Program-made: the position numbers and the translations under genes
Notes under the pieces: generated by a model
What the model saw: the letters and a program-made list of their open reading frames with translations, nothing else
Database searches by the model: none
Told to the model about the DNA's origin: nothing
Part shown: one piece after another, positions 1,942 through 61,590 of the stretch
Position numbering within the stretch: position 1 is the first letter of the stretch
How the letters are laid out: each line of letters opens with the position of its first letter
Origin: Punctularia strigosozonata HHB-11173 SS5
Lineage: Eukaryota > Basidiomycota > Agaricomycetes > Corticiales > Punctulariaceae
Length of the DNA: 64,000 nucleotides
Direction of reading: 5' to 3'
Assembly (NCBI RefSeq): GCF_000264995.1
Contig: NW_006767438.1
Coordinates: 1,475,211 to 1,539,210, forward strand

Positions 1942-2211
1942 TGTAACGGTGCGGCTCTGTCCGCGCGCCGTCCGAGCCGTAACCACCCCCCGGTATACTT
2001 CCTCCGGTCTCCAAGGCTTCCTTTCCTTACCGAATAACATATACTCCTCGCCTACTAGCCTACAGGTATATAAGTAGCGTACGACGAGAGATGTACGCTA
2101 CCTTTCTCTCCCCCGCTCAACGTAGACTTACAACGGTCTATCGCCTGAGCACTGAGAGTCTAAACCGTGTGAACGCACCTCCGCTCTAAACAGAGCCTTG
2201 CTCGCGTCACA
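1942..2211 (+). repeat. Left LTR (270 bp)
   Basis: Identical to 11112-11381. It starts TG and ends CA. A TATATAA-like box (ggtatataagtag, around 2063-2075) is a plausible promoter for the genomic RNA, with a pyrimidine-rich stretch (cctttctctcccccgc) after it. Confidence 0.95.
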
Positions 2212-2374
2212 TATTTTTGACCCACGTCTACGTGAGTTACACTCAAACCTTTGTCTAACTGACTTCCTTTGATTCTAGGACTCTACTCGGTCTGATCACC
2301 CGAGTAAAACCTGATCTTAGGACGTCACCGAACCCCTGTGAGTCCATCGTTACATCTTCTATACGCGCACTGCT
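2212..2374 (+). other. Retroelement leader between LTR and Gag-Pol
   Basis: 163 nt of untranslated leader. A tRNA-type primer site normally begins TGG just inside the LTR, and I see no TGG in the first 60 nt. Priming may therefore use a tRNA fragment or the element's own RNA, as in some fungal Ty3 relatives. Confidence 0.5.
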
Positions 2375-5300: not shown

Positions 5301-8300
5301 GGATAATCAATGAACCCGTATTGTCCGCACTAATCTTTTTACCTGTTCTGCACGTCGGACGCTACAATTTTGACTTTGTCGGGTGGTACCGCAAACGGAT
5401 CCTTGAGTTAATCGACCTATCGTACAAGTTTGAACGACAAGAACTGGACTATACAGCGGCTGATTACCTGGTTGATACGTGCATCTTTGAACTGACGAAC
5501 CGTAACGAGGAGGTCGACGACGATGATCCGCCGTCAGACCAAAACGGGAGCCAAGATTCGTCAAGTTCGGAGGGGGACGGTGATGAGGCCTTCTTCTCCT
5601 GTGAAGACGAATCCCCGAACAACGATGAACCAGTCACGGAGCAAACTGAGCACGTACCCGACACCGACACCCCAACCACAACACCGAACGCCTCAGGATA
5701 CGCCAACAGCTGGTGGGTCCACTCCCGAACAGGTGCAAAACCAGGTAGCCCGGTCACACCGCGTGTCGAAACGGTCACTGACCATAGCGATTGGGCCTTG
5801 AGCGAGATATCGGAAACGATACCGAGCCTACACTCGATCACCGACTCGGGCAGCGATGACGAGAGCTCGTCACATGAAGACGAGGACCCCGAGACTGACC
5901 TGGAGGGCGAGGATCCATCTTTGCGAACGGCTGCGCCCGCGAACAGCGAAACGATTGACTTCGGCGCAAAAAGACAAGAGATTGAAACAGCTCCGGTCGG
6001 GACGATAGGCGACGATTACGTCCTACGACCGCGACCAGTCGAAGTCATCGATGAGCTCTGCGAACTTAACGATATCCGGCCTGAGACGTGGCGTAACGAG
6101 AGCCTCCTCCGGTACCGAATCCACGCCGCGCGCGTCAAACAAGTACCCGAGGGCAGCTTTCCTTCCCTCCAACGCAATGCCGCTCGTGTCCGAACCACGG
6201 GGCGTAGCATTCCGAAACCCATAGTCATCCTAGTTCGCGTTAACGGCCACGAATGTCGGGCTCTTTTGGACTCTGGTTCCCTCGGAGACTTCATGTCGAC
6301 AACCCTCGCCGAACAACTTAAAGTCGCGAAGACCCCTCTCGACAGCCAAGTTACCGTTCAGCTTGCTGCGCAAGGATCGAAAACCAAGGTGAACTTTTGT
6401 ACTTCGGTCGATCTCCAGTATGCGAGCGTTGACTGCAAGAGAACCTTCGATATCATGAACATCGACGGGTACGACCTGATCCTCGGTACCCCATTCATTT
6501 GGCAACACAAGGTACTAATCGGTCTCAACCCCGCCAGGGTCATGATCGGAACCGACGAACCTAGCACGATGAAACCAGGGAACGACGTCGGATTACTCGC
6601 GTCCCGAGCGATTCGACTCGAAGAACGAAAACTCGACGATATCCGAAAAGAACTACACGAGTACGCACGCCCGCTCTACCAGAAGGCCACTGAAACCCAG
6701 CTACCACCGTTGCGGCGCGTAAACCACCGAATCCCGATCATCGACCGCACCAAACGTTACCCGTTCCGTCCCTCAAGATGCCCCGAAGGCTTTCGTGAGT
6801 TATGGAATGCGAAACGTGATATCTTTCTAAAATCCGGACGTTGGCAGTACGCGAACGGCATCAACGCCGCCCCACTCATGTTCCTCCGGAAACCAAATGG
6901 CGGCATGCGCAACACGATCGATCTACGCGCACGAAACGACAACACGGAGAAGATTGCGTCCCCGCTGCCTGACCAAGATGGTATCCGCCGTCGAGTTGCT
7001 CGTAGCAAGTACTTTACGGCAATGGATCTGGAGGGCGCGTACGAGCAGGTTCGGATAGAACCAGAGGACGTCGAACACACCCTCATGGCCACTCCTGATG
7101 GTACCATGATTAGTCTTGTATTACAGCAGGGTGATTGCAATGCCATCGCTACTTTCATGGCTGTAATGACGGATCTGTTTGCACCATACATCGGGGTATG
7201 GCTCGAGATCTACCTCGACGACCTCATCGTCCACAATGACGACCTCGAAGAGCATGTTCACTGTGTCAAGATTGTGATCGACACATTACGGGACAACCAA
7301 TTCTTCCTGTCCGAATCCAAGATGCATTTTCTCGCCGGCCAGATCAAGTTACTTGGCCATATCGTTACACACGACGGGATCTACCTCGACGGGGCCAAGA
7401 TCGACAAAATCAATTCGTGGAAAACACCTACAAACCGGGACCTGTTACGAGGGTTCTTAGGCGCCGTAGGATACCTCGCCGACGGATGCGCAGGGATACG
7501 CGTGCCAATGGATGTCCTTAACCGACTAACCGGCGACACCGTAGTATTTCGATGGGGACCCACCGAGCAGCGCGCCTTCGACGAAGTCAAGCAGATTGTT
7601 GAGTCCCATCGACACGTCAACCGCGTCTCTATGGACTATGGACCAGATGCCGCGCCAGTACACGTCATCACGGACGGATGCCTCACGGGTGTCGGTGGAT
7701 GTATCCGCCAGGGTGCAGATTGGCGAACTGCACCCGTCGTTGCATTCTATTCCGCAAAATTATCTGCTGCCCAGCAAAACTACGCCGTACATGAAATAGA
7801 ATTGCTTGCTGGACTCGAGACGATGATGCGCCATCGCGATATCCTGCTTGGGGTCCGGTTTCGATGGTACACTGACCATAAAGGACTAATACACTTTATG
7901 AACCAAAAGAACCTGACCGGACGACAGGCACGATGGTTAGAAAAGCTATCCGAATTCGATTTCGAAGTTGTGTACGTACCCGGACTCGAGAATAACCTCG
8001 CCGACGCACTCTCGCGAATCTACTCCAACGACTCCCCGGGAACCGAACGACGAGCATCCGAAATGGTTCAGCATGACGACAGACAACCCCCGAGCCACGA
8101 TGCGCCCATGATCCTGACCGGACTCGAAGCCCGCATGGCCGTACTACGACCACGACCAACTCGCCCCCAAGCCTCGCTGCAGGAAAAACAACCATCAGCA
8201 CCACGACAGGAGGATGCAAAGACCCACCAACGGAAGACGCAAACCGTCGCGCGGGCGCCCGCACAACGAAGGGTGACTGACGACGCGCCGGCAGAAACAG

Positions 8301-11059
8301 GACGACCCGAGACCGCGAAAGAATTTGCGAAGCGTATTAAGAGGGTCACCTTGAAGCTGCCAGTACAACTTCAGGAGGGCGAGGGCATTACTAGACAAGA
8401 ACCAGAAGAGAACGCAATCGCAGAGTTAGGCCCTGTGAACGAGCAACGCGACGAGCACGAGGATGACCTTACGCCTGCACTGCCGCCCATACTCGCTGGC
8501 TCCGACATCGACTTCCCTAACTGCCTTAAGGGCAAATACAACGACGACTCATTCTATCGGGACATCCTGGCCAATCCGTCACACTACAAGAACTTCGTAT
8601 GCGAAGACGACGTCGTATATCTCAAGGAATCGGGTGCGAGACTACTATGCGTACCTGACTGCTTCCTCGGACAGCGAAAAGCCCGCGAGATAATAATAAC
8701 GCGCGCACACTCCCTGCTAGCCCATCTGGGAGCCTCGAAAACGGTAACTTACCTCAGGAATAGCGTGTGGTGGAAGACCATGGTAGCTGACGTGCAACGG
8801 TACTGTGAGACGTGTACCACTTGCAAACGTAGCAAGCCCAGTAACCAAAAACCCTACGGTCTACTAAACCCCTTACCCGTAGCCACAGAACCATGGGAGG
8901 CGATAGGGATAGATTTTGTAGGACCGCTCCCCCTGTCGAAAGACAGGGATGGCTCGTACGACGAGATCACCGTCATCATCGATCTTCTGACTGGCCGAAT
9001 CCATCTGGTGCCTAGTCGACAGGATTATCGCGCTAGGGACGTTGCTGAACTGGTCTTCGTAGAAGTATACAGATTGCACGGACTCCCCAAGCGCATAATA
9101 AGCGACCGCGACGTCCTGTTCACGAGCACCTTCTGGCAGCACTTAAATCAACTTATAGGCATATCCTTAAACATGTCTAGTGCCTACCACCCGGAGTCTG
9201 ACGGCTCCACCGAGCGCGCGAACCGCACTATCACGCAGATGATCCGGGCATGCGTAGGGACTGATCAGAAGGATTGGGTATCCAAACTCCCGGGTATCGA
9301 ATTTGCCATCAACGCGGCTCGCTCTGACAGTACAGGTTTCACCCCGTTTTTCTTAGATACTGGGCGCATGCCCCGGTCCATGATCTGGGACCAACCGAAG
9401 GACGACGAATATCCGGGCGTCCGAGCCTTTGCACAACGCATGCGAAACGCGGTAATGGCCGCTCACGATGCCATTCTCGACGCACGAGTAAAGCAGACCC
9501 GACTCGCAAATCGACGACGACGACCCTCCCCTTTCGCGCAAGGAGACTTAGTATATGTTTCTACGAAGAACTTATCACTCCCCAGGGGACGTGCGCGGAA
9601 ACTCATACCAAAGTACGTTGGACCCTATCTCATTGAAACGGACTTCGGAAACAGCTCCTACCGGTTAAAGTTACCGGCGCGGTTGTTGCAACGAGGTATC
9701 CACCCGGTATTTCATGCGTCGTTACTACGTGTCCACGTACCTAACGACGACCGCCTATTCCCGGGGCGCGCCGAGACTCAGGTCGCAGACTTCGGGGAAG
9801 ACGCTTCGGAATGGGCTATCGACAGGATAGTCTCGCACAAAGGACGAGGAACGAACACGATCTTCGAAGTTCGCTGGCGTGCGGGTGATACAACATGGCT
9901 GCCGTTGTCAAAAGTCGAAGGGTTCGAACAGCTAAAGCACTACTTCGACGCTCTGGGAGTTTCTTCCGCCTCCGAGCTCTCGGACGGGACAGGGAAACCG
10001 CCTACGGATGATCCCCAGGTTTATGCAGGCGGCATCCGCCTCTCGCTTGTCGGCGACCTAGTTACTGACGATTTCGTATATAATACAGGACCACCAAGTC
10101 GCCCCGCAAGCAGCCCGCCACCTAATCCTCGACCTCGCCCCAACCGTCGCTGCCGAAACAAGACCCGCCGCACCCGCCGCTCACGCAAAGCGTCAATGGC
10201 TGATGCAGATACCCTCATGAACTTCGACGATGACCCCATCGGCGAATTCCTGAAGTCTCCTGTCTCTAACGACCTTACGGCTGCCCTCGGCGGGACTCCG
10301 TTCGATAACGCATCCTCGAATCCTACGCATGCATCCGGTGGGACCGATAACGGCCCTGCCCTTGACATCATCGACGGAAACTACCCCCCCGCGCCCGTGT
10401 CCGAGACAAGCTCCGTCGCTATCATCAACGAGGATCCCGAGAGCCTCGACCCTTCCTTTAGCCCCGTCGATGACTTCCTCGCCCTCGGGTTCTTTATCTT
10501 CATGAAGAAATCGGCCCGCCAATTTATCCTGCGCTCCCCGACGGGTGATGGTGGCTTCACCCTCGATACAATCGCACACACTACCCTTAATCGATTCCTC
10601 TCTTTCGACGAGAAGATCCGGTCGCACGCCGTACCTGCCTCCGCCGAACTGCCGGATGGCTACTACGACTTCGCCACGAAGTTCAACAATCTCGTACCAA
10701 AGACGAAGGCGTGCTTCTCCACTTACATCCCGGGTGATGCGAGCGGCACGCGCTACTACATCCACGGTCCCTCCCCTCGCGCCATCTTTTTCACTCCGGA
10801 GATTCGCGCCGCCTTCAGTCAGCGACGCCGCGACCAGCTACGCCCGGGCCGCGCCCGCCCACACGCGCAATCCCACTCCGGCACACCAGACTCTAGCGCC
10901 CGTACCGCTCGCAAGAACCGCCCCATGCGCAACGGTTATGTGGGCATCGACAGACGCGGCCGGAACGCGCCACCAATGTCTGACGCACAGCTGCGCGAAC
11001 GTATACTGCTGGAAGCAGTCCGGGAATCTATGAACGAACGAGCCGGTTCCCGCTTCTAA
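2375..11059 (+). CDS. Gag-Pol polyprotein of the Ty3/gypsy element (2,894 aa)
   Basis: One uninterrupted frame encodes the whole polyprotein, so Gag and Pol are made without frameshift or readthrough. Visible parts by approximate residue: disordered N-terminus (1-300), short coiled coil (310-350), Gag capsid-like region (480-650), CCHC knuckle CWNCSQPGHLGRNC (727), a long very acidic spacer (770-1230), protease with LLDSGS (1299), reverse transcriptase with YLDD (1613), RNase H (1764 on), integrase zinc-binding HHCC region (2112-2147) and catalytic core (from 2180), and chromodomain (2480-2535). About 350 residues after the chromodomain match no family I recognise. The ATG at 2375 is the first in frame after the leader. 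Confidence 0.95.
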   Translation: MVAPQEDAPRRVLRSDTRRVEAAGNVAHTRGPAIPRVDSRGMETESTHDRSAEPGAPADVVLPGGWSAIQAHAPGVGLTAPTVTAVPLSREGSAGSGLTSAFSDGQTFASSKDGSSSAAGDDPSAWTRVSRRSPSPKFSVKTTIGNNNQFAVLAEIDDDPRDEDLVSHELQELPKAEPGRAPRLPEPATPVAKRIYHSVTMEDVPDEGNAWKAPVHATPTPAPKLDKGKGVARYAGRPASPNQKPGPSDLRRHDAAEPVYFPGTDDNELESAKQDLELRYWNSRRTPVVPKLESPDSLGIDIANAERSRDLFLTERNHALQQSEQARREAVREKLNLVKERDEIEQKYLELLAKVSRTPSPGSLYVESEPKERPGRERTGPKHDPPSHGNVFEHDDMPSHRQPDLGHRNITRSSFLRSGYQSISAPVLRTANRVPISLQPSHYVPASSSLGQTIRRRLAHLHRATTEIEKCIATGQSLPRAVIKPQPPTVYTGKSDLDAFQRFVEESCEFLIDGQVTSEWHVQKLRRYLGGAAERFYKQVIKVPEDWGIDDFLLHLFNYCFDDGFLGAVRKRFNSWMQQESAVKIYASVLEGLREDLGSEISDLRMSQRFWEGLNPQITACLYHYGMHPEHDSFEDAVAAAIQAERAIKNSVHLGSTIASTGSKTQKNTPNRKRNAGSTSESHPPSGRTEGPTATTTASSGPKKPARKDIPKMSDEERQRHIDNGLCWNCSQPGHLGRNCPDRQKAKGTTTRPPGKTSYAVRLPLVEDESDHENSGDEPVEIIDELRANSMYLTEFFGDSDSETETGDSTSDDSGSETEVDDEDDRSSTLSEVVAQYGNLGVVLDNGLDVWGNPPDVRFTPETRTAPWDHIIRADQLWHNIDYLRTRGITPVMAQAREAYHRAISHPDDRCPDEVRYHELEEETMYRRRFGDPVQERIERQMMLGIHRLPHLWQTWPQETAVASCMIKTRSGELAWIINEPVLSALIFLPVLHVGRYNFDFVGWYRKRILELIDLSYKFERQELDYTAADYLVDTCIFELTNRNEEVDDDDPPSDQNGSQDSSSSEGDGDEAFFSCEDESPNNDEPVTEQTEHVPDTDTPTTTPNASGYANSWWVHSRTGAKPGSPVTPRVETVTDHSDWALSEISETIPSLHSITDSGSDDESSSHEDEDPETDLEGEDPSLRTAAPANSETIDFGAKRQEIETAPVGTIGDDYVLRPRPVEVIDELCELNDIRPETWRNESLLRYRIHAARVKQVPEGSFPSLQRNAARVRTTGRSIPKPIVILVRVNGHECRALLDSGSLGDFMSTTLAEQLKVAKTPLDSQVTVQLAAQGSKTKVNFCTSVDLQYASVDCKRTFDIMNIDGYDLILGTPFIWQHKVLIGLNPARVMIGTDEPSTMKPGNDVGLLASRAIRLEERKLDDIRKELHEYARPLYQKATETQLPPLRRVNHRIPIIDRTKRYPFRPSRCPEGFRELWNAKRDIFLKSGRWQYANGINAAPLMFLRKPNGGMRNTIDLRARNDNTEKIASPLPDQDGIRRRVARSKYFTAMDLEGAYEQVRIEPEDVEHTLMATPDGTMISLVLQQGDCNAIATFMAVMTDLFAPYIGVWLEIYLDDLIVHNDDLEEHVHCVKIVIDTLRDNQFFLSESKMHFLAGQIKLLGHIVTHDGIYLDGAKIDKINSWKTPTNRDLLRGFLGAVGYLADGCAGIRVPMDVLNRLTGDTVVFRWGPTEQRAFDEVKQIVESHRHVNRVSMDYGPDAAPVHVITDGCLTGVGGCIRQGADWRTAPVVAFYSAKLSAAQQNYAVHEIELLAGLETMMRHRDILLGVRFRWYTDHKGLIHFMNQKNLTGRQARWLEKLSEFDFEVVYVPGLENNLADALSRIYSNDSPGTERRASEMVQHDDRQPPSHDAPMILTGLEARMAVLRPRPTRPQASLQEKQPSAPRQEDAKTHQRKTQTVARAPAQRRVTDDAPAETGRPETAKEFAKRIKRVTLKLPVQLQEGEGITRQEPEENAIAELGPVNEQRDEHEDDLTPALPPILAGSDIDFPNCLKGKYNDDSFYRDILANPSHYKNFVCEDDVVYLKESGARLLCVPDCFLGQRKAREIIITRAHSLLAHLGASKTVTYLRNSVWWKTMVADVQRYCETCTTCKRSKPSNQKPYGLLNPLPVATEPWEAIGIDFVGPLPLSKDRDGSYDEITVIIDLLTGRIHLVPSRQDYRARDVAELVFVEVYRLHGLPKRIISDRDVLFTSTFWQHLNQLIGISLNMSSAYHPESDGSTERANRTITQMIRACVGTDQKDWVSKLPGIEFAINAARSDSTGFTPFFLDTGRMPRSMIWDQPKDDEYPGVRAFAQRMRNAVMAAHDAILDARVKQTRLANRRRRPSPFAQGDLVYVSTKNLSLPRGRARKLIPKYVGPYLIETDFGNSSYRLKLPARLLQRGIHPVFHASLLRVHVPNDDRLFPGRAETQVADFGEDASEWAIDRIVSHKGRGTNTIFEVRWRAGDTTWLPLSKVEGFEQLKHYFDALGVSSASELSDGTGKPPTDDPQVYAGGIRLSLVGDLVTDDFVYNTGPPSRPASSPPPNPRPRPNRRCRNKTRRTRRSRKASMADADTLMNFDDDPIGEFLKSPVSNDLTAALGGTPFDNASSNPTHASGGTDNGPALDIIDGNYPPAPVSETSSVAIINEDPESLDPSFSPVDDFLALGFFIFMKKSARQFILRSPTGDGGFTLDTIAHTTLNRFLSFDEKIRSHAVPASAELPDGYYDFATKFNNLVPKTKACFSTYIPGDASGTRYYIHGPSPRAIFFTPEIRAAFSQRRRDQLRPGRARPHAQSHSGTPDSSARTARKNRPMRNGYVGIDRRGRNAPPMSDAQLRERILLEAVRESMNERAGSRF

Positions 11060-11111
11060 CACCCCTCACTTATTCGTTGATTCATAGACCTTCGGTCTCT
11101 GGGAGGGCGAA
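11060..11111 (+). promoter_or_regulatory. Polypurine tract region before the right LTR
   Basis: GGGAGGGCGAA (11101-11111) abuts the right LTR. A purine run here is the usual primer for plus-strand DNA synthesis in LTR elements. Confidence 0.75.
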
Positions 11112-11381
11112 TGTAACGGTGCGGCTCTGTCCGCGCGCCGTCCGAGCCGTAACCACCCCCCGGTATACTTCCTCCGGTCTCCAAGGCTTCCTTTCCTTAC
11201 CGAATAACATATACTCCTCGCCTACTAGCCTACAGGTATATAAGTAGCGTACGACGAGAGATGTACGCTACCTTTCTCTCCCCCGCTCAACGTAGACTTA
11301 CAACGGTCTATCGCCTGAGCACTGAGAGTCTAAACCGTGTGAACGCACCTCCGCTCTAAACAGAGCCTTGCTCGCGTCACA
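11112..11381 (+). repeat. Right LTR (270 bp)
   Basis: Identical to the left LTR at 1942-2211, followed directly by the second CAATC (11382-11386). Confidence 0.95.
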
Positions 11382-15560: not shown

Positions 15561-16165
15561 CGGTACGCTGCACCTTCACAGTTCTCCCGCTCATGTGACC
15601 ACGACGTCTGACATGGCCATCGCAGTTCGCCTACGAACAGTTTCCGCGGAATGTGGTTCGGTCTCGGATGACACGGTATCGTGCTATTGGTGGTGTTGAA
15701 TCCAGTCTCAAAGGCAAGTTCTTGCACGTCGATCCGTACCTGTTATCGTCATATATGAACCTAGAGAGATCGCCTGCATGTAGAATCGTTAGGGTTGCCT
15801 TTGAATAATGTTGCTTGTGATTCGTCCACACCCGATGAGATTCGGGCAGAGTGTGTATCAGACCGGATGTATTAGAATGCTTGGGCTTCGGGATCCGGGG
15901 ACAATCCGTACGATTCCCGAGGCTCTCGGCGACATTCATGCTACATTGATTCACATCCTACATTATCTGGGAGAACCGATGAGATCACCTCGCCAAACGG
16001 TGGCTATGTAGTTAAGTCTCAAAATCGTGTATGACCGCAGTTATCCCCGGATGACAGCGAGGTCCTGCGTGGTCGCTTCACTCTTGTGCTTCGGTCGCTT
16101 ATGCTGCAATTCCTCCTGCAACATCCTGTGTGAATTGCTCTCAAACTTGGTCGTTTTCACTGGGG
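15561..16165. other. No supported gene
   Basis: Sequence between the ATPase fragment and the inverted-repeat element. Nothing recognised on either strand. Confidence 0.4.
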
Positions 16166-17062
16166 TTGATGTACCATCAATGTCGTTTTGACACAGGGTC
16201 CAAATCTACATTTTTTGCATCTCAGAATCCAAGAAATATCCTGTAAACATTTGAAATTTATTAGAGCATGTTTCAGATCAAAAAATGTTTTGAAAAATCG
16301 CAGAAAATCGCAGAAAACTATGAATAAATCCAAATAAATTATTATTTTGTTCCTGATTTGTCACTTTCAAATAGATTTCAAATTCTTATAGGAATGTTTC
16401 TTGAATTTGGAATCATGAGAAATCTAGATTTGTACCCAGTGTGAGGACATTGATGGTGCCCTTCTGACCTGCGACATTTCCTCTCAATTCTTGGGAAAGG
16501 GTAGTTATAAATCTCAAGTGCTATGAATATTTCTATGTAGCGGTTGGTCTGCCAGAACCATTCTGCTCCGCCAAAAGTCTTTATTCCCATGCCGTGATGC
16601 CGAGCGCCCGACTGGCTCGCGCGGGAGGCCCCGCCAAATTCTCCTGCTTTGTCACCATTTTGGGCGGAGCTCGAACTCAGATGTCTCACTCTCCTCTCAA
16701 AGATTGCCCTTCGAGACGCTCCCTTTTTTCATTAGTATGAATCGGGAAATGTAAAAATAAACAGAATATAGTAGAGCACGTGTCCAAATATTTTCAGATT
16801 TTAGAATGTAACGATCCAGTGAGCCGAAGGATATCTTCGCGAGAGAACCAACTTGATTCACGCTTTCGACGACCTTGTCGATTTTATGCTCGCGTTCGCA
16901 GGTACTCCACTCGATATTGCTTTGACCCATAGCATGTTATAAGAATTACAATGATTTATGTTTATTCTCAAGCCATAACAACGAATGAGCATCGTTGAGC
17001 AACCTCATCTTTGCACACAGACATTGACATTGATGGTGCGAAAGACATTGATGGTACATCGA
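16166..17062. mobile_element. Non-autonomous inverted-repeat DNA element, copy 1 (about 0.9 kb)
   Basis: The ends are inverted copies of the 17-bp core GATGTACCATCAATGTC (16168-16184 and, inverted, 17044-17060). The right end carries a second copy of the motif just inside (17027-17040, TTGATGGTGC), and another lies internally at 16446-16459. The interior is AT-rich (16200-16400) and has no coding capacity. Copy 2 at 59755-60443 shares the terminal motif, the doubled right end and the internal block CTGCTTTGTCA...GCGGAGCT (here 16650-16673). The exact edges and target duplication are unclear. The family is unknown to me; a MITE mobilised by an absent transposase fits best. Confidence 0.7.
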
Positions 17063-17320
17063 CAGTAGATGTTCAACGTGCAATACAGGACCGGGCCCAA
17101 CAAGACTAGTACATCGTACGTACCAGTCCAAGTATACACGTCCAAGGAAGTTTCCGAAAACGTCACAAACCGACGTATATTATCCACGATGCAGAGAACG
17201 TATGTATGTATAATACAGCGAAGAAGCCCGAAAAAAAGTTCGAAAGTGAGGGCGATGCAACAGATGAATCATCAATTGACGTATACGTAACCCAAAGAAA
17301 GCGAAAATAAAAGACGTGTC
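17063..17320. other. Short intergenic stretch
   Basis: 3' flank of the DUF3433 gene, which ends at 17321 on the minus strand. Nothing else seen. Confidence 0.4.
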
Positions 17321-39919: not shown

Positions 39920-41398
39920 TGCGAGGACGGGGGATGGTGAGGACGTACCCTATATCAAATACTTATGGCGTTCATAAATCGCAGGTATGTAAGGTGTTGA
40001 CTGTGGAAGACATCCCCTGGATCAATTGCGACCAGATCAATCATACAGGGCGCTTCGTAAGGGGTGGCAGTCCAAGATATCGATCACCTGTGTTGTCCAG
40101 AAGGCCCATCCACATACCTGAAGTTGCGATTGCGAGTTATTCTTGGATTCGGAATGTCTCCGCCCTATTCCCATCATCACAAACCCGTGTATAAGTAGGC
40201 AAAGCAGTGCCTGCTGCTGAATGGAAGATGATCGAACTACCCGATCTTATGGATATGCCCAAATGAGAGCCATAAGTCCGACGTCGTATTCTCCGGATAG
40301 CGGCTTAGTATAGTTTGCACGTATATATATCTCAGAACGTAGGGGATGGTCATAGCGCCTCATGATCCGTGATGGGTCCGAGTATGATACTTACGGATGG
40401 AAACTATTGTCGCGGCGCCCTTCGCCTACTACGGCAATACGCTCTTTTGAAGGTGTCTGTCACACCGACGTTCTATCATGAGCCTGATGTCCTGCATGTC
40501 ATATTTCCCGCTCTAGTCATATCTTGCGCCATAGTACGCTGCGATCGAGGCTCCTACCTTCAAGTTCCTATATATCGAGTACTGAACAGCTATTTCGAAG
40601 TTGATGTCACTTGCATCCGCTTCCGAGACTCCTTTACCAGCGTGTAAAGGATTGTTTCAGCCGAACCTGCCGGATCCGTGACGGTGTCATCGAGGAAGGC
40701 CAACTCACGACGTGCAGTTCAAAGGCATATCAGCGGCATTGTTCATGATCAGCAGCGGGATTCTTGGATGATTTGTCCTGCGTACGCACCAATGTATATA
40801 TATTTGCGTGTGTATCACCTCTTGCATCTCTTGATGACATGATAACGACAACTGTTATATGAAATGAGGAAAATCAGAGTGTATCGTGCACCAAGGATGT
40901 CAACGGCCTGTAATGCCGCTGCGCAGCGGCTGCACTCGCGATCGTCTTCGATGGCAGACCGTGGAATCACCGCAATTCCCAGCTAAGTAGATCGTGTTCG
41001 CATGTGCCCATGCACGAGATATGTACGTACTGCGTTGTGGGGCTTGGATGCGGGGACTCCGCTCTTTGTGCGCGGTGGAGGCTGGAGTATTATTGGACTT
41101 TAACGTGTCGCCTACTCGAATCTGGAGGGTTGAGCCATGTGATAATAGAAAAGAGAGTACCACTGTAAGTACGGAGGGACTTGACGACGCACAGCATTGA
41201 ACAGTGGCGCGATATCATGAGGGCTCGCCCATCAGCGCTGAACGAGGGGGCTACTCGATAAACACTTCTTGGCATGTCATAATCGCTGTCATGAAACTCG
41301 TGCCGTCTCCTCTCGGCTCCCGCAATGATACACCGCGTGGACGATACGGCTCCGCGCCCTGACGCCCCTGTCGCTTTGTCCATTGTCCAACTGCGACG
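39920..41398. other. Intergenic, plus duplicated promoter of the amidohydrolase
   Basis: Nothing recognised from 39920 to about 41260. From about 41285 to 41398 the sequence matches the region just above the full-length amidohydrolase (46025-46140), sharing CGTGCCG, CTCCTCTCGGC, CACCGCGTGGA and CGACGATGGGGACCCA. The tandem duplication therefore included the promoter-proximal region. Confidence 0.55.
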
Positions 41399-43440
41399 AT
41401 GGGGACCCAAGAAATCCTTCCCGAGCCTTACGCTGGCGCAACCTCACAGCCGTCTTTTCTCGAGGGGGGACACTCTGCCTTGCGCTCGCCGGCATCATCT
41501 TCTTATTCAATCTCTTTGCGCCGATTTCATTATGGAACAATTTCGGAAGAGGAGGTGACGCTGCCGCGAGGATGCAGCGGCTTCCGATCCGCGCGACGGA
41601 GATCTTGGCGCGCTGTGCTGCGACGAAGGTAAAGGCGGGGATGAGCGAGGTTGAGTTGGACGTGTTTTGGAAAAGGGAGGAAAGCGAGCGATGGGATGGG
41701 GGAAACGCGACGCTCATCCGGAACGCGACCATCTGGACAGGTATGTCGCATCCTCATTCAGACTTGCGTCTGCGGAATGTTCGGATCCTGATTTTTCTCG
41801 TACGCTAGGTGCGCAAGCTGGCGCGGAAGTCCTCTACGGCGACCTGCTCCTTTTGAAGGGGGTCGTCAAAGGTGTCGGGCACATCCCCCGCTCCAAGCTC
41901 ACGCAGTTCAACCTACCTCCGGCCCTCGCAGCACAATATGCCCTCGAACAAGCCTACTCTAAGTTCAAGGAGAACCTTACGATTGTCGATGCCAGAGGAC
42001 GATGGCTCACACCTGGTCTCGGTACGCCCTTCTTTGCACCTCCTTATCCCAAGTGCTCGCTAACCCTGGAGCTAGTCGACCTGCACTCACATATCGGCCT
42101 GTCGTCCGCCCCTAGCCTCGCCGGCGCCGAGGACGTCAACTCACCCAACGGACCAGTGCTACCCTTCCTGAGGTCGATTGACGCGCTCAACACGCACGAC
42201 GATTCGCGTGTGCTTGCGCTCGTGGGCGGCGTGACCTCCGCGCTCGTCCTCCCTGGCTCAGGCAACGCCATCGCCGGCCAGGCCGTCGTTGTTAAGTGGC
42301 GCAAGCGCCGTGGATTCGGCCCCGGCGCGATGGTCGTTGAGCCGTCGCCCGAGCTGCACATCTCCGGCTCGGCTGCGGAGTACTACACGAACAGCACACC
42401 GTGGAGGTACCTCAAGTACGCATGCAGCGCATCTTATCGTAGCATCGGATTGACTGATATGCGCGTGTTAGGCAGGCGTGCGGCGAGATTTTGCGTCAGT
42501 ATGGCACGCGGATGGACTCGGCTTGGTCGTATCGAGCGGCGTACGAAGAGGCTCGCAAGATAAAGCGAGCCCAGGACGAATACTGTGCCACCGCTGAGGC
42601 GGGGCTGTGGAGTGCGATTGAGGGCAAGGAGTTCCCGGAGAATCTGCAGTGGGAAATGCTCGTCGACGTGCTGCGCGGGCGGGTGAAGGTGAACAACCAC
42701 TGTTACGAAGCTGGTAAGTGATGCATGGCGTGTCCGCGAGCCTCTCGTTAATATCGTCTGCATCGGTACAACAGTCGACCTCGACGATCTCGTCCGGGTA
42801 CGTTGCTTATGCTCTGTACTGTTGTGTAGATGAGGCTTACAAGCATCACAATAGTTGACGAATGAATTCAAATTCCCGCTCGCGGCGATCCACCACGCGT
42901 CCGAGGCATGGCTCGTCCCCGACCTGCTCAAGCAGACGTAGGTTCCTCAGCGCCTCCAATGACTTCGTCCCAATTACACTGACTAACGTATCCGCGCGGC
43001 AGGTATGGGGGCCCATCCGCGGTAGCGATGTTTGCTACCACCCATCGGTACAAGCGCGAGAGCTTTCGCGGTTCGGAGTTCGCGCCCCGCGTGCTGGCCG
43101 ACCACGGGATCGCCGTCGTTATGAAGGTGGATTTCGGGCCATCTCCCCATGTCCTCCGTATGACTGAACCTCGTCGTCGCAGTCCGACCATCCGATCGTC
43201 AACTGCCGCTACCTTGTGCACGAGGCGCAGCAGGCGCACCACTTCGGCCTCGCGCCGGATCTCGCGCTCGCGAGCGTTACCTCTACGTCCGCCGCCGCCG
43301 CCGGCCTCTCGCACCGTCTCGGTGTGCTTCGCGAGGGTGCCGATGCGGATGCAGTCCTATGGGACGCCCACCCGCTGCAGATTGGCGCTGTACCTCTGGG
43401 GGTGTCCCACTTCTATGTTCCAGGCTTTAAAGAGAAGTAG
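41399..43440 (+). pseudogene. Truncated amidohydrolase paralogue (CE9/imidazolonepropionase-like)
   Basis: Close relative of the gene at 46141, with the same exon order and introns. MGTQEILPEP begins at 41399, but the next strip (RWRNLTAVFSRGG, membrane segment TLCLALAGIIFLFNLFA) is in the frame that opens at 41383, so the original start appears shifted unless translation uses the ATG at 41383 (MSNCDDG). Then come HIPRSKLTQFNLPPALA, WLTPGL/VDLHSHIG (metal-binding HxH), GPVLPFLRSIDALNTHDD, GQAVVVKWRKR, HHASEAWLVPDLLKQT, HRYKRESFRGSEFAPRVLAD, SDHPIVNCRYLVHEAQQ and EGADADAVLWDAHPLQIGAVPLGV. It then departs into unrelated sequence and stops at 43440. About 450 C-terminal residues of the full paralogue are missing. 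Confidence 0.8.
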
Positions 43441-45740: not shown

Positions 45741-46140
45741 GATAGTTGAAGAACAGTTTTCGACTTGCGCAGGGCTTTGGTGAGCGAGTTGAGACAAGTA
45801 GTATGACATTATTTATCGCTGTAAAATAACGTTGAGTGTTCTGTGCATCGTGATCCGTGATCGCGCCTGTACACCTGCTATCCAGCGATATCGAGTACGA
45901 CGAGGGCGAGCCAACTCCAGGGCGTCGACAAACCGATGACTCGTTCATACTCATTCTTCTTCATCTCCTTGCACCACGGAACTTCAATATCAACACGCCT
46001 TTTCGCGTAAATGAACGCCCCACCATGAACGTCGTGCCGACTCCTCTCGGCACTCACGATGATATACGCATGCACCGCGTGGACCACACGACCGCACCCC
46101 TGACGCTCCTCTCGCTTTGACCGTCGTCACAAGCTCGACG
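45741..46140. promoter_or_regulatory. Divergent upstream region of protease-like and amidohydrolase genes
   Basis: 400 bp between divergently transcribed starts. The right 115 bp are conserved with the region above the truncated paralogue (41285-41398), which marks it as part of the duplicated unit. Confidence 0.5.
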
Positions 46141-49100
46141 ATGGGGACCCAGGAGATACTACCCGAACCTTTCGCCCACTATCGGCGGCGGCGGCACGGT
46201 CTGCCGTTCATCTCGTCTCGTACCAGCATAGCCTGCCTGGCGTTAGTCAGCGCACTGTGCTTCTTCAACTTCTTCGCGACCTCGTCGTGGAACGCGTTTG
46301 CAGGACTTGGTGAAGGAGGCGATGGCTCGAGCAAGGTGCAGCGCGTGCCGATGCGCGCGTCGGAGATACTGGCGCGCTGCGCGGCGACGAACGTGAAGGC
46401 AGGGATGAGCGAGGGCGAGCTGGACATGTTCTGGACGAGGGAGGAGAGCGAGAGGTGGGACGGGGGTAACGCGACGCTCATCCGGAACGCGACGATCTGG
46501 ACCGGTAAGCGATCAATATCCTGCTATATTTTATGTCGGCAGGCGTCTCTTGTGAGATGTCGCAGCCGCTGATTAGGACCGTATGCTAGGTGCACGCTCC
46601 GGCACGGAAGTTGTCTACGGTGATCTGCTTCTCTCAAAGGGCATCGTCAAGGGCATCGGACACATCCCTCGCTCCAAGCTCGCGAAGTTCAATATCCCAC
46701 CTGCTCTTGCGGTAGAACACAACTTCAACCAGTCGTACTCGAAGTCCAGGGAAAATCTTACAATCGTCGACGCCAACGGACGCTGGCTCACACCTGGTCT
46801 CTGTACGCTCTCCCCTCTCGTCATATCCCTATCCTTGCTAAGACCTTCCGCACAGTCGACTTGCACTCGCACATTGGACTGCTTGCAGCGCCTCACCTCG
46901 CCGGCGCCTTTGACGTCAACTCACCCAACGGGCCCGTCCTGCCCTTCCTTCGCTCTCTGGACGGGCTTAACACGCACGACGACGCGCGCGCGCTCGCCCT
47001 CGCTGGTGGCGTCACCTCCGGACTCGTCCTACCCGGATCGGGGAATGCGATTGGTGGGCAGGCTGTCGTCGTCAAGTGGCGTAAGCGCCGAGGCTTGGGC
47101 CCGAGCGCGATGGTCGTTGAGCCCCCGGCGGAACTGCACGTCAACGGATCCCATGCAAGACACTACACGAACAGCACGCCGTGGAGACACATGAAGTGAA
47201 TTGGCTTATCCTTCCGTTCGTCAATGTCGCTAACGGAGACTGGTTGCATAGGCAGGCATGCGGGGAGAACCTACGCAAGTATGGGACGCGCATGGATTCG
47301 ATCTGGTCTTTCCGTGCCGCTTATGGCGAGGCACGGAAGATCAAGCAGGCCCAGGACGATTACTGTGCCGCGGCCGCGGCCGGGCTGTGGAACGTCATCG
47401 AAGGCAAGGAATTCCCGGAGAGTTTGCAGTGGGAGATGCTCGTCGACGTGCTGCGAGGGAGGGTGAAGATTAACAATCACTGCTATGAAGCTGGTGAGCG
47501 CCGACATTCGTCATGACTGCGTGAGCTGCTGGTGATGTCTCTCCTTTCCTACAGTCGACCTTGATGATATCGTCCGCGTACGTTACCTCAACATGACCTC
47601 CAGTGTTGATGATGGCTCACGTGTTTGTCGCTACAGCTGACGAACGAGTTCGAGTTCCCGCTCGCGGCGTTTCATCACGCATCCGAGGCGTGGCTGGTGC
47701 CTGATCTCCTGAAACAGACGTACGCCATCGCTTCAACATGAGACCTGCCCTGCACTCTGCTAACATGTGCCTCTGCAGATACGGCGGTCCACCCGCGGTC
47801 GCAATCTTCGCGACCAACCACCGCTACAAGCGCGAAAGCTACCGCGGTTCTGAATTTGCGCCGCGCGTGCTGGCTGACAACGGGATAGCCGTCGTCATGA
47901 AGGTAAAGATGCCCCACGTACTCCTCGCCTTCTCGGATCATGGATCCTCACCCCTTGTTTTCGTTAGTCTGACCACCCGGTAATCAAGAGCCGCTACCTC
48001 GTACACGAGGCTCAGCAGGCGTACCATTTTGGACTCGCGCCGAACCTCGCGCTCGCGAGCGTGACCTCTACGCCAGCGAGCGCCGCAGGGCTCGCGCACC
48101 GCCTCGGCGTGCTGCGCGAGGGCGCGGACGCGGACGTCGTGCTCTGGGACGCACATCCACTCCAGATCGGCGCGGTGCCGTTGGGAGTGTGGGTGGACGG
48201 CGTGCGGGAGGTGCCAGCGCGGGAGGAGGACGGGGGAGTGGGATGGGTGAACGATTGGGTGGGCAATGATGGGGACGCGGATGTGGAAGGGGAGAGGCAG
48301 AGGGTGCCGAGTGTCCCGGACTATGATAAGGAGAGGGAGGAAGCGATTCGATGGGAGGGCTTGCAGCCGCTTGCGCCGAAGCAGGAGGCGGGCACCGTGG
48401 TGTTCAGAAACGTGGGCGAGATCTGGCTGAGAGAGGAGGGACGTGTTGAGAAGAGGGACGTGGGGGGAGCGGTGGTCGTCGTTGCGAACGGGAGCGTGGT
48501 GTGTACAGGCTCGTGCACGGCCTTCGTCCAGGAGGCGGACGCGATGGTCGACCTAAGAGGCGGCGCGATCGCGCCCGCTTTCACGGCATTCGGTGCGTTG
48601 TCCCCTCTTTTTTATCGTGTTTGATCAGCGCAGCTGAAAGTGTTATTCTCAGGATCTCCCCTTGGCCTCGAAGAGATCCAAGGCGAGCCCAGCACGGGCG
48701 ACGGTGCGCTGTATGACCCGTTCATGGCAGACGTACCGGCGGTAATGGGCGACGTCGCAGGCGTCCTCCGTGCCGCCGACGCGCTACAGTTTGGCACACG
48801 GAACGCTTTGTACGTTATCTGCTCACCACATCGCATAACTTTCGGCGCTGACGGAACTGGTTCTAGAACTGCCCACATCTCTGGAGTGACCAAGGCCGTT
48901 TCGTCCCTCACCAAGCGCACTCTCTTCGCCGGCGCGCTGTCGCTGACGCCCTCTGTGTCGGTCGCGTTCCGCACGGGCGCGTCCGGCGCACTCGAGCGGG
49001 GTGCGGTGCTAAACGAGGCGACGGCATTGCATGTGACGATACAAAGGGCGGCACCGTATGCATCCGGCGCGGCGAGCGTGAGCGCGCAGGTGGCGGCGCT

Positions 49101-53391: not shown

Positions 53392-54709
53392 ATGCGCGCC
53401 CTCGGCCTTCCAGCATCTGTACGTCAAGGCTGTTGAGCACAGCTAATGATACTACAGGCCTCATCATCAACCGCCTGCACTGCCCGCAAACCCTGTACGA
53501 TCCGATATAGACGATCTGTCTTGCTTATCATGCGACCCCGCCGAGGTTTTGACTGCCTCTCTTGTTCCTGCTCACCTCTTGAAAAAGCTGTCTTGATGGA
53601 CTGCTTGACGGATCTGACGCCGAATCCCGAGCTGAGCGGCGTTGGCGTGAGGCTATCCCTGTATTTGCAAGGCTTCTTCATGATGTTGAGTGCGACCAAA
53701 CTCGACTTGGATATGTAACCATCGCTCTGACCTGTCACACTAGTGACGTGCTCCCAAGAGCTTGGGTCGCTACGCATCAGATCAGATACCCCCAAGGCGC
53801 TCATCGTGACGAACATTTCGATATGCATCTCATCGCTCTTTTTAAGGCTTGGGACCCTCACTCTTATCGAGTACGTCTCATTCTAGAAACTTTATCTGGA
53901 CGTTATCAGAACTTAACGGGTTCTTTTCCAGCGCGTTATCGGCCGCGTTTCTGTTGACGGGATAGTCGATGTGTATCTTTGTGTGTCTGCCAAGATGTAC
54001 CTCGGACGAAACGGAAGCTATTTCGCATCGAGGGAGCATATTCATGGAATCTTTGGCGATATTCCATCACGCCTTCGTGTTCTCCGTGATCATTGCGATA
54101 CCAGTTCACATACCCCATCTCGGCCCGTACTCAGCCTCCTTTGAGGAGATCGCCTTAGAGGCGCCTTTCCTCTCTCCGGTGCTGCACGGCGGTTGGCAGT
54201 TCGGCGTTGATGCGGCGGTTATCATTATGCTCGCCGCCATCGGTGACGCGATCTCTCGCATCGCTCTGATGTGGTATCCTCACCACCTTCAACAATCATG
54301 GGCCCGTGGCAAAGCCTGCCTTCTCCTACGAATGATGATTGACATCCTTGTCGAATTCGGCGCTTTCGGTTGTTGTGAGAGCTTCCTACAAACCATCGGC
54401 TCGTCATCCTACTCTCAACAGCCCGATCACGCCTGGACTTTCGGACAGGTAACAAGAACTCGTCTTCGATTTTCTCTCTGCTGCTCGTCGTCGTTCCTCT
54501 GCCAACGATGGTCACCTCCGAATGTCCGTGAAGCGCACGACGATTGCAGGTTGCACCGAGTCCTGACACGAGAATTTTTAGGTGTGCGGGAGTGGCATCG
54601 AGCACGGCAGGCACATATATGGATGCGGCAGAGATTTCCACAGGCCGTTCTGACGAGACAAGGGGCTGATAGTCGTAGGAAGGGTCAGGCAGGACGGTAT
54701 ATCCAATGA
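53392..54709 (+). pseudogene. Uncharacterised multi-pass membrane protein gene, probably broken
   Basis: ATG 53392 (MRALGLPAS) joins by a 39-nt intron to a frame with PNPELSGVGVRLSLYLQGFF, the first-helix style of a basidiomycete membrane protein family (NPDISGIGVR...YAQ in relatives). A second exon gives DTPKALIVTNISICISSLFLR. A third gives ALSAAFLLTG, then hits TAG (about 53960), where the copy at 60.9 kb has TCG. Beyond it the frame stays open through SLAIFHHAFVFSVII, IPHLGPYS, LHGGWQFGVDAAVIIMLAAIGDAISRIALM, ARGKACLLLRMMIDILVEFGAFGC and HAWTFGQ. The TAG suggests a recently dead or polymorphic gene, unless splicing avoids it. Function unknown. Confidence 0.5.
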
Positions 54710-59174: not shown

Positions 59175-59754
59175 GGGCTCAGAGTGCGGCGGTGAGCGCC
59201 GGTTCATCGTAGACCATCTTCTTATATACTATTCACCTTTTGCCAATCGATTTTCAACGACCTGGCCCGACGAAGGTACCAAATGGCTGTCAATGCGTCG
59301 CGAACGATCGATCTGTCAGATATTAGCTTACGGCAGCGATTACGATACGCTAGCCTTCGACGATATCATCCGTTCTCGGCGTTAGCTTGAGCGTTACTAC
59401 CGCCATAACGTGGTCAGGTAGCAAAGCAACCTCTAAGAAGATCAGCTGATGGAGAATCCTCATTTGACGATAATGAAGAACCTACGGGCCGCCACGTACG
59501 CATGGCTATCCATCGGAGGCGGGGCAAGCGTAGCTCGATTTCCGACGAGCCCGGTAGGTATGGTGCATCGGAGAAGACGCTGCATTGACATAGGAAATTG
59601 ATTATGTTCTGAGGTTTGGCGGTACTTGCGTTGATCCGTGCACCCTGGTGTAAGACGTGGTCGGACTGGGTTCGGATCAAGCCCTCTTCTGACCGTGGGG
59701 CTTGCTTTGTATTAGTGGGAATGTTGCCACGCGCGTCGCATCCTTTCGTCAGGG
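59175..59754. other. Intergenic, no gene seen
   Basis: Upstream side of DUF6534 gene D, then featureless sequence up to the inverted-repeat element. A minus-strand open frame at 59414-59812 overlaps the element end and has no motif. Confidence 0.45.
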
Positions 59755-60443
59755 GTACTATGGATGTACCATCAATGCAATTTCGATTGCATTGATGGTT
59801 CAAAATCGTCATTTCATTGCTAATCCACCCAGAAACTAGATCATATGGTATCCAAAACCATGTAGCAGCTGTATGTCAAGCCTCAAATATTTTGGTACGC
59901 GGGATGCCTTGCCAGAGCGATGCCGGTAGGACGTGTCGATGACTCTGCAGATTGCACAATGGGTCCCCCAAGGCCGAGAAGCCGAGGCCGCGACCTTCTG
60001 GCGGGGAGCTCCTGCAATCTGACCCTGCTTTGTCAGCATTTAAAGCGGAGCTTTAATTGCATTCATGGCACCTCCGCCAGTAATCCTTGCATAGCAAGCA
60101 CAAAGTTGCAGATATCACGTATCGGGATAGACAGACGTACCTTCTGTATAGTATAGGGTATAGTTGAATATATCCAGATTTTTATCAGTTCCGATCCCTT
60201 GAGCCGAGCCGTGTCTTCATGCTAGAGCATGCTTGGATGGTTCCCCAAACGACGTTGCGCATTTTCTGTAGGCCCATCCCCTAATGCTTCGCTCTGTTCC
60301 TTTGGCACATATCATTAGATAGTACTGTATATGCACTCAATTTAATATGTAGGGATTAGGATGAGAGGGAGCCCCGCAGTGACGAGATTTCAGACCGATT
60401 GCATTGATGGTACACTATTGCATTTATGGTACATCCATAGTAC
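59755..60443. mobile_element. Non-autonomous inverted-repeat DNA element, copy 2 (689 bp)
   Basis: Terminal inverted repeats of 27 bp (59755-59781 and 60417-60443) differ at one base and read GTACTATGGATGTACCATCA inward for the first 20. The outermost GTAC is its own complement and stands at both ends, so it may be the target duplication (GTAC, or TA within it). Each end has a second copy of the inner motif: an immediate inverted copy on the left (59786-59799) and a direct copy on the right (60398-60412). The interior shares CTGCTTTGTCA...GCGGAGCT (60025-60051) with copy 1 at 16166-17062. No transposase is encoded. Superfamily not determined. Confidence 0.8.
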
Positions 60444-60565
60444 GCGGAGCAAGGGCTTGCTCCGAACCTACCTCCGCCCGTGTTGCATGCGTCACATCGA
60501 CGTCCCCTTTTTATTGATTACCTTCCAGTCCAGTCCGATCTTCTCTATTCCCCTGAAAACACTAC
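60444..60565. other. Short spacer
   Basis: Sequence between the inverted-repeat element and the chimeric duplicate. Nothing recognised. Confidence 0.5.
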
Positions 60566-60893
60566 GCAATCGCGCCCGCTTTGACGGCATTCGGTGCGTT
60601 TTCCCCTCTTTTTTCTTGTGTTTGATCAGCGCAACTGATGGTGTTATGATCAGGATCTTCCCTTGGCCTCGAAGAGATCCAAAGCGTGCCCAGCACAGGC
60701 GACGGAGCGCAGTACGACCTGTTCGTGGCACACGTACCGACGGTAATGGGTGACGTCGCAGGCACCCTCCGCGCCGCCGATGCGCTACAGTTTGGCACAC
60801 GGAACGCTTTGTGCGTTACCTACTCGCCACATCGCACAACTTCAACGCTGACGGGACTGGTTCTAGAATTTCCCACATCTCAGGCATATCGTC
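60566..60893 (+). pseudogene. Copied internal piece of the amidohydrolase gene
   Basis: About 325 bp closely matching 48566-48890 of the full amidohydrolase: CGCGCCCGCTTT, ACGGCATTCGGTGCGTT, CCTTGGCCTCGAAGAGATCC, GCGCTACAGTTTGGCACACG and GACTGGTTCTAG-type strips in order. The copy keeps the two introns of that region, so it was copied as DNA. It has neither the start nor the catalytic part of the gene and is not expected to work. It ends within a few bases of the start of the membrane-protein duplicate. Confidence 0.85.
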
Positions 60894-61590
60894 TGTGCTT
60901 CTGTTAACAGGATCGTCGATGTCTATCTTCGTGAGCCTGCCAATATGTACCTCGGACGAAACGGAGGCCATGTCTCATCGAGGGAGCATATTCATGAAAT
61001 CTCTGGCGATCTTCTATCACGCCTTCGTGTTCTCCGTGATTATCGAGATACTGGTCCGCATACCCCACCTTGGCCCGTACTCAGCCTGCTTTGAGGAGAT
61101 CGTCTTGGAGGTACCTATCCTCTCTGCGGTGCTGCACGGCGGTTGGCAATTTGGCATTGCTGCGGCGGTTTTCATTATGATCGCCGCCATCAGTGACTCG
61201 ATCTCTCGCATCGTTCTGATGCGGTATCCTCACCATCTTCTGCGATCATGGGCCCGCGGCAAAGCCTGCTTTCTCCTACGAATAATGACTGGCATCATCG
61301 TTGAACTCAGTGCTTTCGGGTGCTGCGAGAGTCTCCTCCAAACCATCAGCTCCTCGTCATACTCGCAACAGCCCGATAACGCCTGGAGCTTCGGACAGGT
61401 AGCGAGAACGCCATGCATGGCCCAAGCCGATCGGTACTGACTCTCGTCTTAGATTCTCTCTCTGCTGTTCCTCTGCAAACGATGATAACCTCCGAATTTC
61501 CGCCAAGCGCACGACGATTGCAGGTGACACCGAGACCTCGTCTCACGAGAATTCTTCGCCTCCTGTCGTCACTCACGCCATCTCAGTGTC
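60894..61590 (+). pseudogene. Partial copy of the membrane protein gene at 53392
   Basis: Matches about 53937-54585, including the stretch after the last clear exon. The frame reads LLLTGSSMSIFVSLPICTSD, MKSLAIFYHAFVFSVIIEIL, IPHLGPYSACFEEIVLEVPI, LHGGWQFGIAAAVFIMIAAI, ARGKACFLLRIMTGIIVELS, NAWSFGQ without a stop, and runs open until 61440. It lacks the first exons (PNPELSGVGVR and DTPKAL regions), which have been replaced by the amidohydrolase piece. Many of the differences from the other copy change the amino acid. It is probably not expressed as a working protein. Confidence 0.75.

What the first reader, a model, noticed from the sequence alone, without database searches (positions are those of the whole stretch)
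59755..60443. Inverted-repeat element family with doubled ends, two copies in the window
Two loci (16166-17062 and 59755-60443) share the inward terminal motif GATGTACCATCAATG, a second copy of it a fixed short distance inside the right end, and an internal block CTGCTTTGTCA...GCGGAGCT in the same orientation. Interiors otherwise differ in length (about 900 and 689 bp). The repeated motif could be a transposase binding site. I know no named family with this end structure.
Basis: seen in the sequence. Interest (0 to 1): 0.75.

Follow-up and report, generated by a model that had tools for sequence, protein, structure and literature searches.

The report
Small gene-less transposon family in fungus
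A wood-rotting fungus carries about a dozen near-complete copies of a roughly 690-base jumping DNA element that has no genes of its own and keeps a fixed pattern of repeated end signals, which is an ordinary kind of mobile DNA with a few interesting details.

Summary
In the 33.57-Mb assembly (by protein match Punctularia strigosozonata HHB-11173 SS5) the 59756-60442 unit has nine near-full copies, eight of them 95-99% identical. The 16-kb copy belongs to a second, deeply diverged subfamily with three near-full copies; its extra length is a separate 250-bp palindromic repeat nested in it with a TGA duplication, absent from its two sisters. Both edges are TA in 11 of 12 near-full copies. Paralogous empty sites of the focal copy show a two-base target, but read TG there, not TA. 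No frame is conserved, and no longer copy with a transposase was found. The motif stands twice at each end: tandem at the right, inverted (a hairpin) at the left. This four-site array sits at nearly the same places in both subfamilies although their interiors are only about 51-58% alike. Best reading: a non-autonomous, cut-and-paste DNA transposon that works like a Tc1/mariner MITE, with the motif as inferred transposase-binding site. The partner transposase is not identified, so superfamily membership is unproven.

The parts
59756..60442 (+). Focal copy, subfamily A (687 bp including one TA at each edge; 683 bp between the TAs)
   Evidence: 9 near-full copies share these edges; paralogous empty site
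59756..59757 (.). TA target dinucleotide, left
   Evidence: TA at both edges in 9 of 9 near-full A copies; TG at this place in two empty paralogs
60441..60442 (.). TA target dinucleotide, right
59758..59781 (+). Left terminal inverted repeat CTATGGATGTACCATCAATGCAAT
60417..60440 (-). Right terminal inverted repeat (one mismatch to the left one)
59766..59777 (+). Motif site 1, GTACCATCAATG (left, inward)
   Evidence: element position 11 in 8 of 9 A copies (lost in L017) and in C24; at 15 in C2 and 13 in the 16-kb copy
59790..59801 (-). Motif site 2, inverted partner at the left end; 17-nt arms with 4 nt between them in the focal copy
60402..60413 (-). Motif site 3, inner copy at the right end
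60421..60432 (-). Motif site 4, outer copy at the right end, within the terminal repeat
60060..60071 (-). Weaker internal match to the motif (2 mismatches); in all 9 A copies, in none of the 3 B copies
60025..60052 (+). Internal block CTGCTTTGTCA..CATTT...GCGGAGCT shared with subfamily B
16158..17067 (+). Second window copy, subfamily B, with a degraded left edge (CA in place of TA) and TA at the right edge (17066-17067)
16192..16441 (.). Separate 250-bp palindromic repeat nested in the 16-kb copy, ends CACAGGG / CACTGGG
   Evidence: own copies at C13, C20, C1, C10; absent from sister copies C24 and C2; 3-bp duplications TGA, ACT, ACT at 3 of 5 copies
16189..16191 (.). TGA duplication, left of the nested repeat (partner at 16442-16444)
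16644..16671 (+). Internal block in the 16-kb copy

Best explanation
A non-autonomous, cut-and-paste DNA transposon family (MITE-like, about 690 bp, no gene) that inserts at TA. A transposase supplied in trans would bind the repeated 12-17-bp motif (two sites per end: inverted at the left, tandem at the right), pair the ends, cut the element out, and put it into a new TA, which is duplicated. Shown: multiple copies with the same edges, terminal inverted repeats, TA at the edges, a two-base target at one insertion, no conserved frame, a four-site array kept in two diverged subfamilies. Inferred: motif = transposase-binding site, cut-and-paste movement, Tc1/mariner-type enzyme.
For: Nine near-full A copies, eight of them 95-99% identical, sharing edges while the flanks differ. 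TA at both edges in 11 of 12 near-full copies (the 11; the 16-kb copy has it only at its right edge). Joined-flank search: the paralog C6:1567059-1567248 reads GGGG-TG-CGCGG where the filled site reads GGGG-TA..TA-CGCGG; C9:363839-363877 also reads TG there. In the five copies examined the longest stop-free frames are 96-126 aa and differ in frame and strand. Motif array: 11>, 35<, 646-647<, 665-666< in 8 of 9 A copies and 11>, 35<, 645<, 663< in the B copy C24. TA-bounded inverted repeats around DDE_3 transposase domains occur in the same genome, e.g. TA|CTGTGGCG..., which shares five of its first six bases with the B ends TA|CTGTCG....
Against: No transposase-bearing element with these ends was found: none of the 25 transposase-domain loci taken with about 1.5 kb on each side (21 places) has a pair of such ends; only scattered words with 2-3 mismatches were seen (L049, L050, L051, L063, L066 among them). 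Both empty paralogs read TG, not TA, so one G/A difference must be assumed, and only one insertion of the 11 searched gave an empty site. Copy number is low for a MITE, and 690 bp exceeds the <500 bp that PMC5579170 gives for MITEs.
Confidence: 0.8

Rival explanations
1. The element belongs to another superfamily: TA belongs to the element itself and the true target duplication is absent or differs (Spy-, Crypton- or PIF/ISL2EU-like).
For: PIF/Harbinger-type DDE_Tnp_4 domains are present in this genome (23 matches); their loci were not fetched, so their ends were not compared. The PHIS paper (PMC4482050, passages read) describes groups with no duplication (Spy, AAATTT targets) and with AT duplications (ISL2EU). 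The empty paralogs read TG, not TA.
Against: With no duplication and a TA-carrying element, the target bases TG should survive beside the filled site; they do not. No AAATTT, A|AT|T, TWA or longer duplication is seen at the 9 A copies.
Confidence: 0.12
2. The two subfamilies are independent internal-deletion products of two related autonomous transposons, and the shared interior is leftover non-coding sequence of those parents.
For: Deletion of the transposase frame from a full-length parent is the usual account of MITE origin (passages of PMC5579170 and PMC3878927). No parent is at hand to exclude it.
Against: A (687 bp) and the B copy C24 (684 bp) are colinear and nearly equal in length, which two independent deletions would not be expected to give; interior homology with the ends removed scores 41 against at most 17 in 500 shuffles.
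Confidence: 0.25
3. The sequence is a host non-coding gene or regulatory repeat spread by segmental duplication, not a transposon.
For: Conserved internal blocks; modest excess folding of the focal copy (z -2.7, 0 of 20 shuffles as stable, partly owed to the terminal repeats).
Against: The copies end at the inverted repeats and their flanks are unrelated; an empty paralog exists; in the focal copy only two Rfam matches at about a fifth of the gathering score.
Confidence: 0.03

Closest known systems
mimp elements of Fusarium (MITEs mobilised by the Tc1/mariner element impala)
   Same: Fungal, gene-less, terminal inverted repeats, uniform size; mimp1 shown to be mobilised in trans by the transposase of impalaE (PMC5579170, passages read)
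   Different: mimps are about 180-220 bp (same passages) against about 690 bp here; their terminal consensus differs; a mobilising element is known for mimp and was not found here
Tc1/mariner-superfamily elements with more than one transposase site per end (Tc3, Sleeping Beauty-type ends; recalled, not checked in a paper here)
   Same: TA target; repeated binding motif inside the ends
   Different: Asymmetric arrangement here: inverted pair at the left, tandem pair 18-19 bp apart at the right; no transposase gene; binding not tested
DDE_3 elements of this same genome (C10:76471 = L049, C5:8153 = L050; ends TA|CTGTGGCGAAAATAAG)
   Same: TA-bounded inverted repeats starting CTGTGG against CTGTCG in subfamily B
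   Different: Similarity stops after the first bases; BLAST (E up to 1) finds no match between the 25 transposase-domain loci and the family

Membership tests
Non-autonomous TIR DNA transposon (MITE-like) | Several dispersed copies with common edges and unrelated flanks | tested here: met
   9 near-full A and 3 near-full B copies
Non-autonomous TIR DNA transposon (MITE-like) | Terminal inverted repeats | tested here: met
   30-31 nt including TA, with 3-5 mismatches, in 8 of 9 A copies and in C24; shorter or degraded in L017, C2 and the 16-kb copy
Non-autonomous TIR DNA transposon (MITE-like) | No coding capacity | tested here: met
   No frame common to the five copies examined; translated A-B matches (best E 2e-8) come up in several frames of both strands at once
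Non-autonomous TIR DNA transposon (MITE-like) | Shares its ends with an autonomous element of the genome | tested here: not met
   None found; the assembly held may be incomplete
Tc1/mariner superfamily | TA at both edges | tested here: met
   11 of 12 near-full copies
Tc1/mariner superfamily | TA target duplicated, seen at an empty site | tested here: inconclusive
   Two-base target shown at one of 11 insertions searched, but both paralogs read TG there
Tc1/mariner superfamily | DDE/D transposase of the superfamily encoded by the element or by a partner with the same ends | tested here: not met
   DDE_3 (20 matches) and DDE_1 (5 matches) present, none with a pair of these ends within the stretches held
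PIF/Harbinger (PHIS) | TWA (or AT, TNA, ANT, CWG) duplication | tested here: not met
   No such duplication at the 9 A copies; groups as given in PMC4482050
Listed repeat family (Repbase and the like) | Match to a catalogued consensus | not testable with these tools
   No repeat library on hand

The most novel reading that the evidence does not exclude
The ~690-bp element is an old, self-standing non-autonomous lineage: both subfamilies descend from an ancestor that was already gene-less and of this size, and an asymmetric array of four transposase sites, perhaps with internal blocks, has been kept by selection for mobility while the rest of the interior changed at about half of its positions. 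This would be a gene-less parasite that outlived its original partner and was re-mobilised later.
Probability: 0.3. Interest if true: 0.45.

Novelty: new member of a known kind. Interest (0 to 1): 0.27.

Why it matters
Gene-less DNA transposons are usually seen as short-lived by-products of a full-length parent. Two subfamilies of nearly equal length and equal end architecture but strongly diverged interiors offer a natural record of which parts of such an element the transposase needs. Otherwise it is an ordinary addition to the transposon catalogue of a wood-decay fungus.

Tried and rejected
Autonomous partner. (a) Terminal pattern with up to 3 mismatches over the whole assembly: 43+33 matches against 25+27 for the reversed control. 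All matches with 0-1 mismatch lie in copies known. Six 2-mismatch matches lie elsewhere; one (C4:2601118) was fetched, five (C4:329309, C6:1218608, C7:1337139, C12:35379, C12:536853) and the 3-mismatch ones outside known copies were not fetched for this (C3:781950 lies within L051). C4:2601118 is a true-looking lone end, TA|CTATCGATGCACCACCAATGTCATTTT, 83% like B over 29 bases; no inverted partner with under 8 mismatches in 20 was found in the 3.6 kb behind it, eight open frames there have no Pfam domain, and a 1005-base stretch from this end inward (with 4 bases of flank) occurs once in the assembly. (b) Two 1-mismatch matches of the motif alone, C11:1026348 (2 kb from a DDE_3 domain) and C4:1132447, were fetched: neither has the TA|CTRTS terminus nor a BLAST match to the family. 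(c) The 25 transposase-domain loci L043-L067 (21 places): motif words with 2-3 mismatches only; TA-bounded inverted pairs of other sequence at L043, L047/L057 (one place), L049, L050, L051, L052, L066 and weak ones at L055; relaxed tests on 11 and 10 of the 25 gave none; BLAST of both subfamilies against all 25 gave none. L066 (DDE_1) has two inward motif-like words, 3 mismatches each, but its own ends are TACAGTGTAATGG, so it was rejected. (d) The degraded relative L021 as query brought no new full copy. (e) The 23 DDE_Tnp_4 matches were listed only.

Coding remnant: translated frames of A against B copies match weakly (best E 2e-8, A+1 against C2; 8e-8, A-1 against the 16-kb copy) in several frames of both strands, as nucleotide homology would give. 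RNA gene: two Rfam hits (E 0.32 and 0.5, about 20 bits against a gathering score of 100) on the left hairpin; only 59700-60500 was searched. RIP: substitutions of the eight close A copies from the majority line are mixed (18 G>A, 16 A>G, 15 C>T, 13 T>C, 13 C>A), no RIP signature.

Selection on internal blocks: identity between the focal copy and the 16-kb copy is more clustered than in shuffles (variance p 0.010; best 12-base window p 0.065; 5000 shuffles), but the aligner itself clusters matches, so this is weak.

Literature: Punctularia strigosozonata with transposable elements and Tc1 (0 papers); with transposon (1 paper, listing only); with transposable elements and MITE, any two of three terms (2,129 papers, the 20 listed name the species 0 times); basidiomycete MITE with target site duplication (7 papers, two read in passages); transposase sites in mariner and MITE (9 papers, one read in passages); mimp and impala (30 papers, 8 listed, one read in passages). 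I found no description of this family in these searches.

Full report
Identity of the genome. The window is C6:1475211-1539210 of a 33,569,446-base, 32-contig assembly. The best protein match of a window open frame (96% identical over 93%) is named Punctularia strigosozonata HHB-11173 SS5 and lies on a contig of 2,122,796 bp, the length of C6; this is an agaricomycete of the order Corticiales.

The observation. Both loci have the described structure. The focal element runs from TA at 59756-59757 to TA at 60441-60442. A whole-genome search returned 21 matches: 14 rows of element bodies and 7 rows of terminal repeats of known copies read in the other direction. Nine bodies are near full length: L009-L016 (686-687 bp, 95.3-99.1% identical to each other) and L017 (659 bp, 90-92% identical to them). 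The other five rows are C4:429141 (first 424 bases), C8 (two rows, bases 1-103 and 98-170, split by about 7.4 kb), C10:322846 (right end only) and a degraded relative at C3:1258126.

The second window copy. Searching with 16160-17070 gave 13 matches. Its real sisters are C24:57872-58555 and C2:315027-315637; C8:1327102 and C3:1613880 are fragments. Query bases 33-282 match other places instead (C13, C20, C1, C10): a separate 250-bp palindromic repeat. C24 and C2 read straight across this point, so they are empty sites for it, and a TGA is duplicated around it. Its copies at C13 and C1 show ACT duplications; those at C20 and C10 show no clear 3-bp duplication. So the 16-kb locus is a B copy of about 656 bp plus a nested repeat.

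Edges and target. At the nine near-full A copies the edge is TA on both sides and no longer duplication is seen. Of the B copies, C24 and C2 have TA on both sides, the 16-kb copy on the right only. To find empty sites, 80-base flanks of 11 copies were joined around a TA and searched (61 matches, 40 of 49 candidates scored). Two places other than the copies themselves cross a junction, both that of the focal copy: C6:1567059-1567248 and C9:363839-363877. Both read ..GG-TG-CGCGG.. where the filled site reads GGGG-TA[element]TA-CGCGG. The target is therefore two bases. The TG/TA difference is a single transition between paralogs; had the element carried its own TA and made no duplication, TG should still be there. 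The other 10 insertions gave no empty site.

Architecture. With two mismatches allowed, GTACCATCAATG or its complement lies at 11>, 35<, 646-647< and 665-666< in the eight close A copies, with a weaker site at 304-305<; L017 lacks the two outermost sites at this threshold. In B the array is 11>, 35<, 645<, 663< (C24), 15>, 39<, 572<, 590< (C2) and 13>, 37<, 617<, 635< (16-kb copy without the nested repeat). The left pair is inverted and can form a hairpin; the right pair is tandem. Outside the ends A and B are related: best local score 41 (58% over 355 columns) against at most 17 in 500 shuffles; core identity is 51% of ungapped columns. So two subfamilies of nearly equal length (687 bp, and 684 bp in C24; C2 is 611 bp) share end architecture and blocks while their interiors have largely diverged.

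Mechanism. No frame is shared by the copies examined, so the element must be moved in trans. From established knowledge of Tc1/mariner elements (TA targets duplicated, MITEs moved in trans; passages of PMC3878927), the simplest account is binding of a transposase to the repeated motif, pairing of the ends, excision and insertion at TA. The binding role and the enzyme are inferred. The genome has DDE_3 (20 matches), DDE_1 (5) and DDE_Tnp_4 (23) domains. TA-bounded inverted repeats around DDE_3 or DDE_1 domains have other sequences: TACTGTGGCGAAAATAAG, TACAGTGGCGTGCG, TACTCGTTCCCGC, TACAGCTAAACTC, TACAGTGTAATGG. None of the 25 loci (21 places) has a pair of ends like CTATGGATGTACC or CTGTCGATGTACC, though for many of them no ends at all were recognised within the stretch held. 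Over the whole assembly the terminal pattern occurs in inverted pairs at element distance only at the known copies; among the single matches, C4:2601118 is a real-looking lone end without partner, domain or second copy, and five other 2-mismatch matches were not fetched. The DDE_Tnp_4 loci were not fetched. The partner is thus absent from this assembly, extinct, on scaffolds not held, or has ends that differ beyond these searches.

Verdict. A real family of a known kind, for which I found no report in the searches named. The most interesting point is the constancy of size and site array across two strongly diverged gene-less subfamilies. Superfamily membership is likely but unproven.

Noticed in passing
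window 1942-11381: LTR retrotransposon: 270-bp flanking repeats 100% identical (1942-2211 and 11112-11381) around a 2894-aa open frame with reverse transcriptase, RNase H, integrase zinc-binding and Tf2-1-like SH3 domains, hence probably a recent insertion.
   Followed up: partly
window 16192-16441: 250-bp palindromic repeat with ends CACAGGG/CACTGGG nested in the 16-kb copy; other copies at C13, C20, C1, C10; 3-bp duplications TGA, ACT, ACT at three of the five. Looks like a separate MITE family with a 3-bp target.
   Followed up: partly
window 48564-48884 and 60565-60884; 53937-54579 and 60887-61556; 41290-43405 and 46024-48190: Diverged duplications (88%, 80%, 72%) within the window; the focal element sits just before one of them, and the empty paralog at C6:1567059 lies about 28 kb beyond the window's end.
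   Followed up: no
L019 1501-1599 and L020 1501-1573 (C8:466784-466882 and C8:459282-459354): An A copy split by about 7.4 kb of other sequence; a 131-bp repeat, 98.5% identical, lies at one inner edge and about 200 bp from the other. Perhaps another mobile element inserted in the copy.
   Followed up: partly
L075, end at C4:2601135 (minus strand): Lone transposon-like end TA|CTATCGATGCACCACCAATGTCATTTT resembling subfamily B, without an inverted partner in the next 3.6 kb, a Pfam domain in eight frames, or a second copy; possibly a relic of a third subfamily or of a longer relative.
   Followed up: partly
L032 (C2:315636-315717, flank of the C2 copy) and flank of L011 (C3:1699083-1699133 and others): Two further repeat families in flanks of copies: one at 14 other places, 274 bp with inverted ends and 98.5% identical between L032 and L063, the other at 9 other places.
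   Followed up: no
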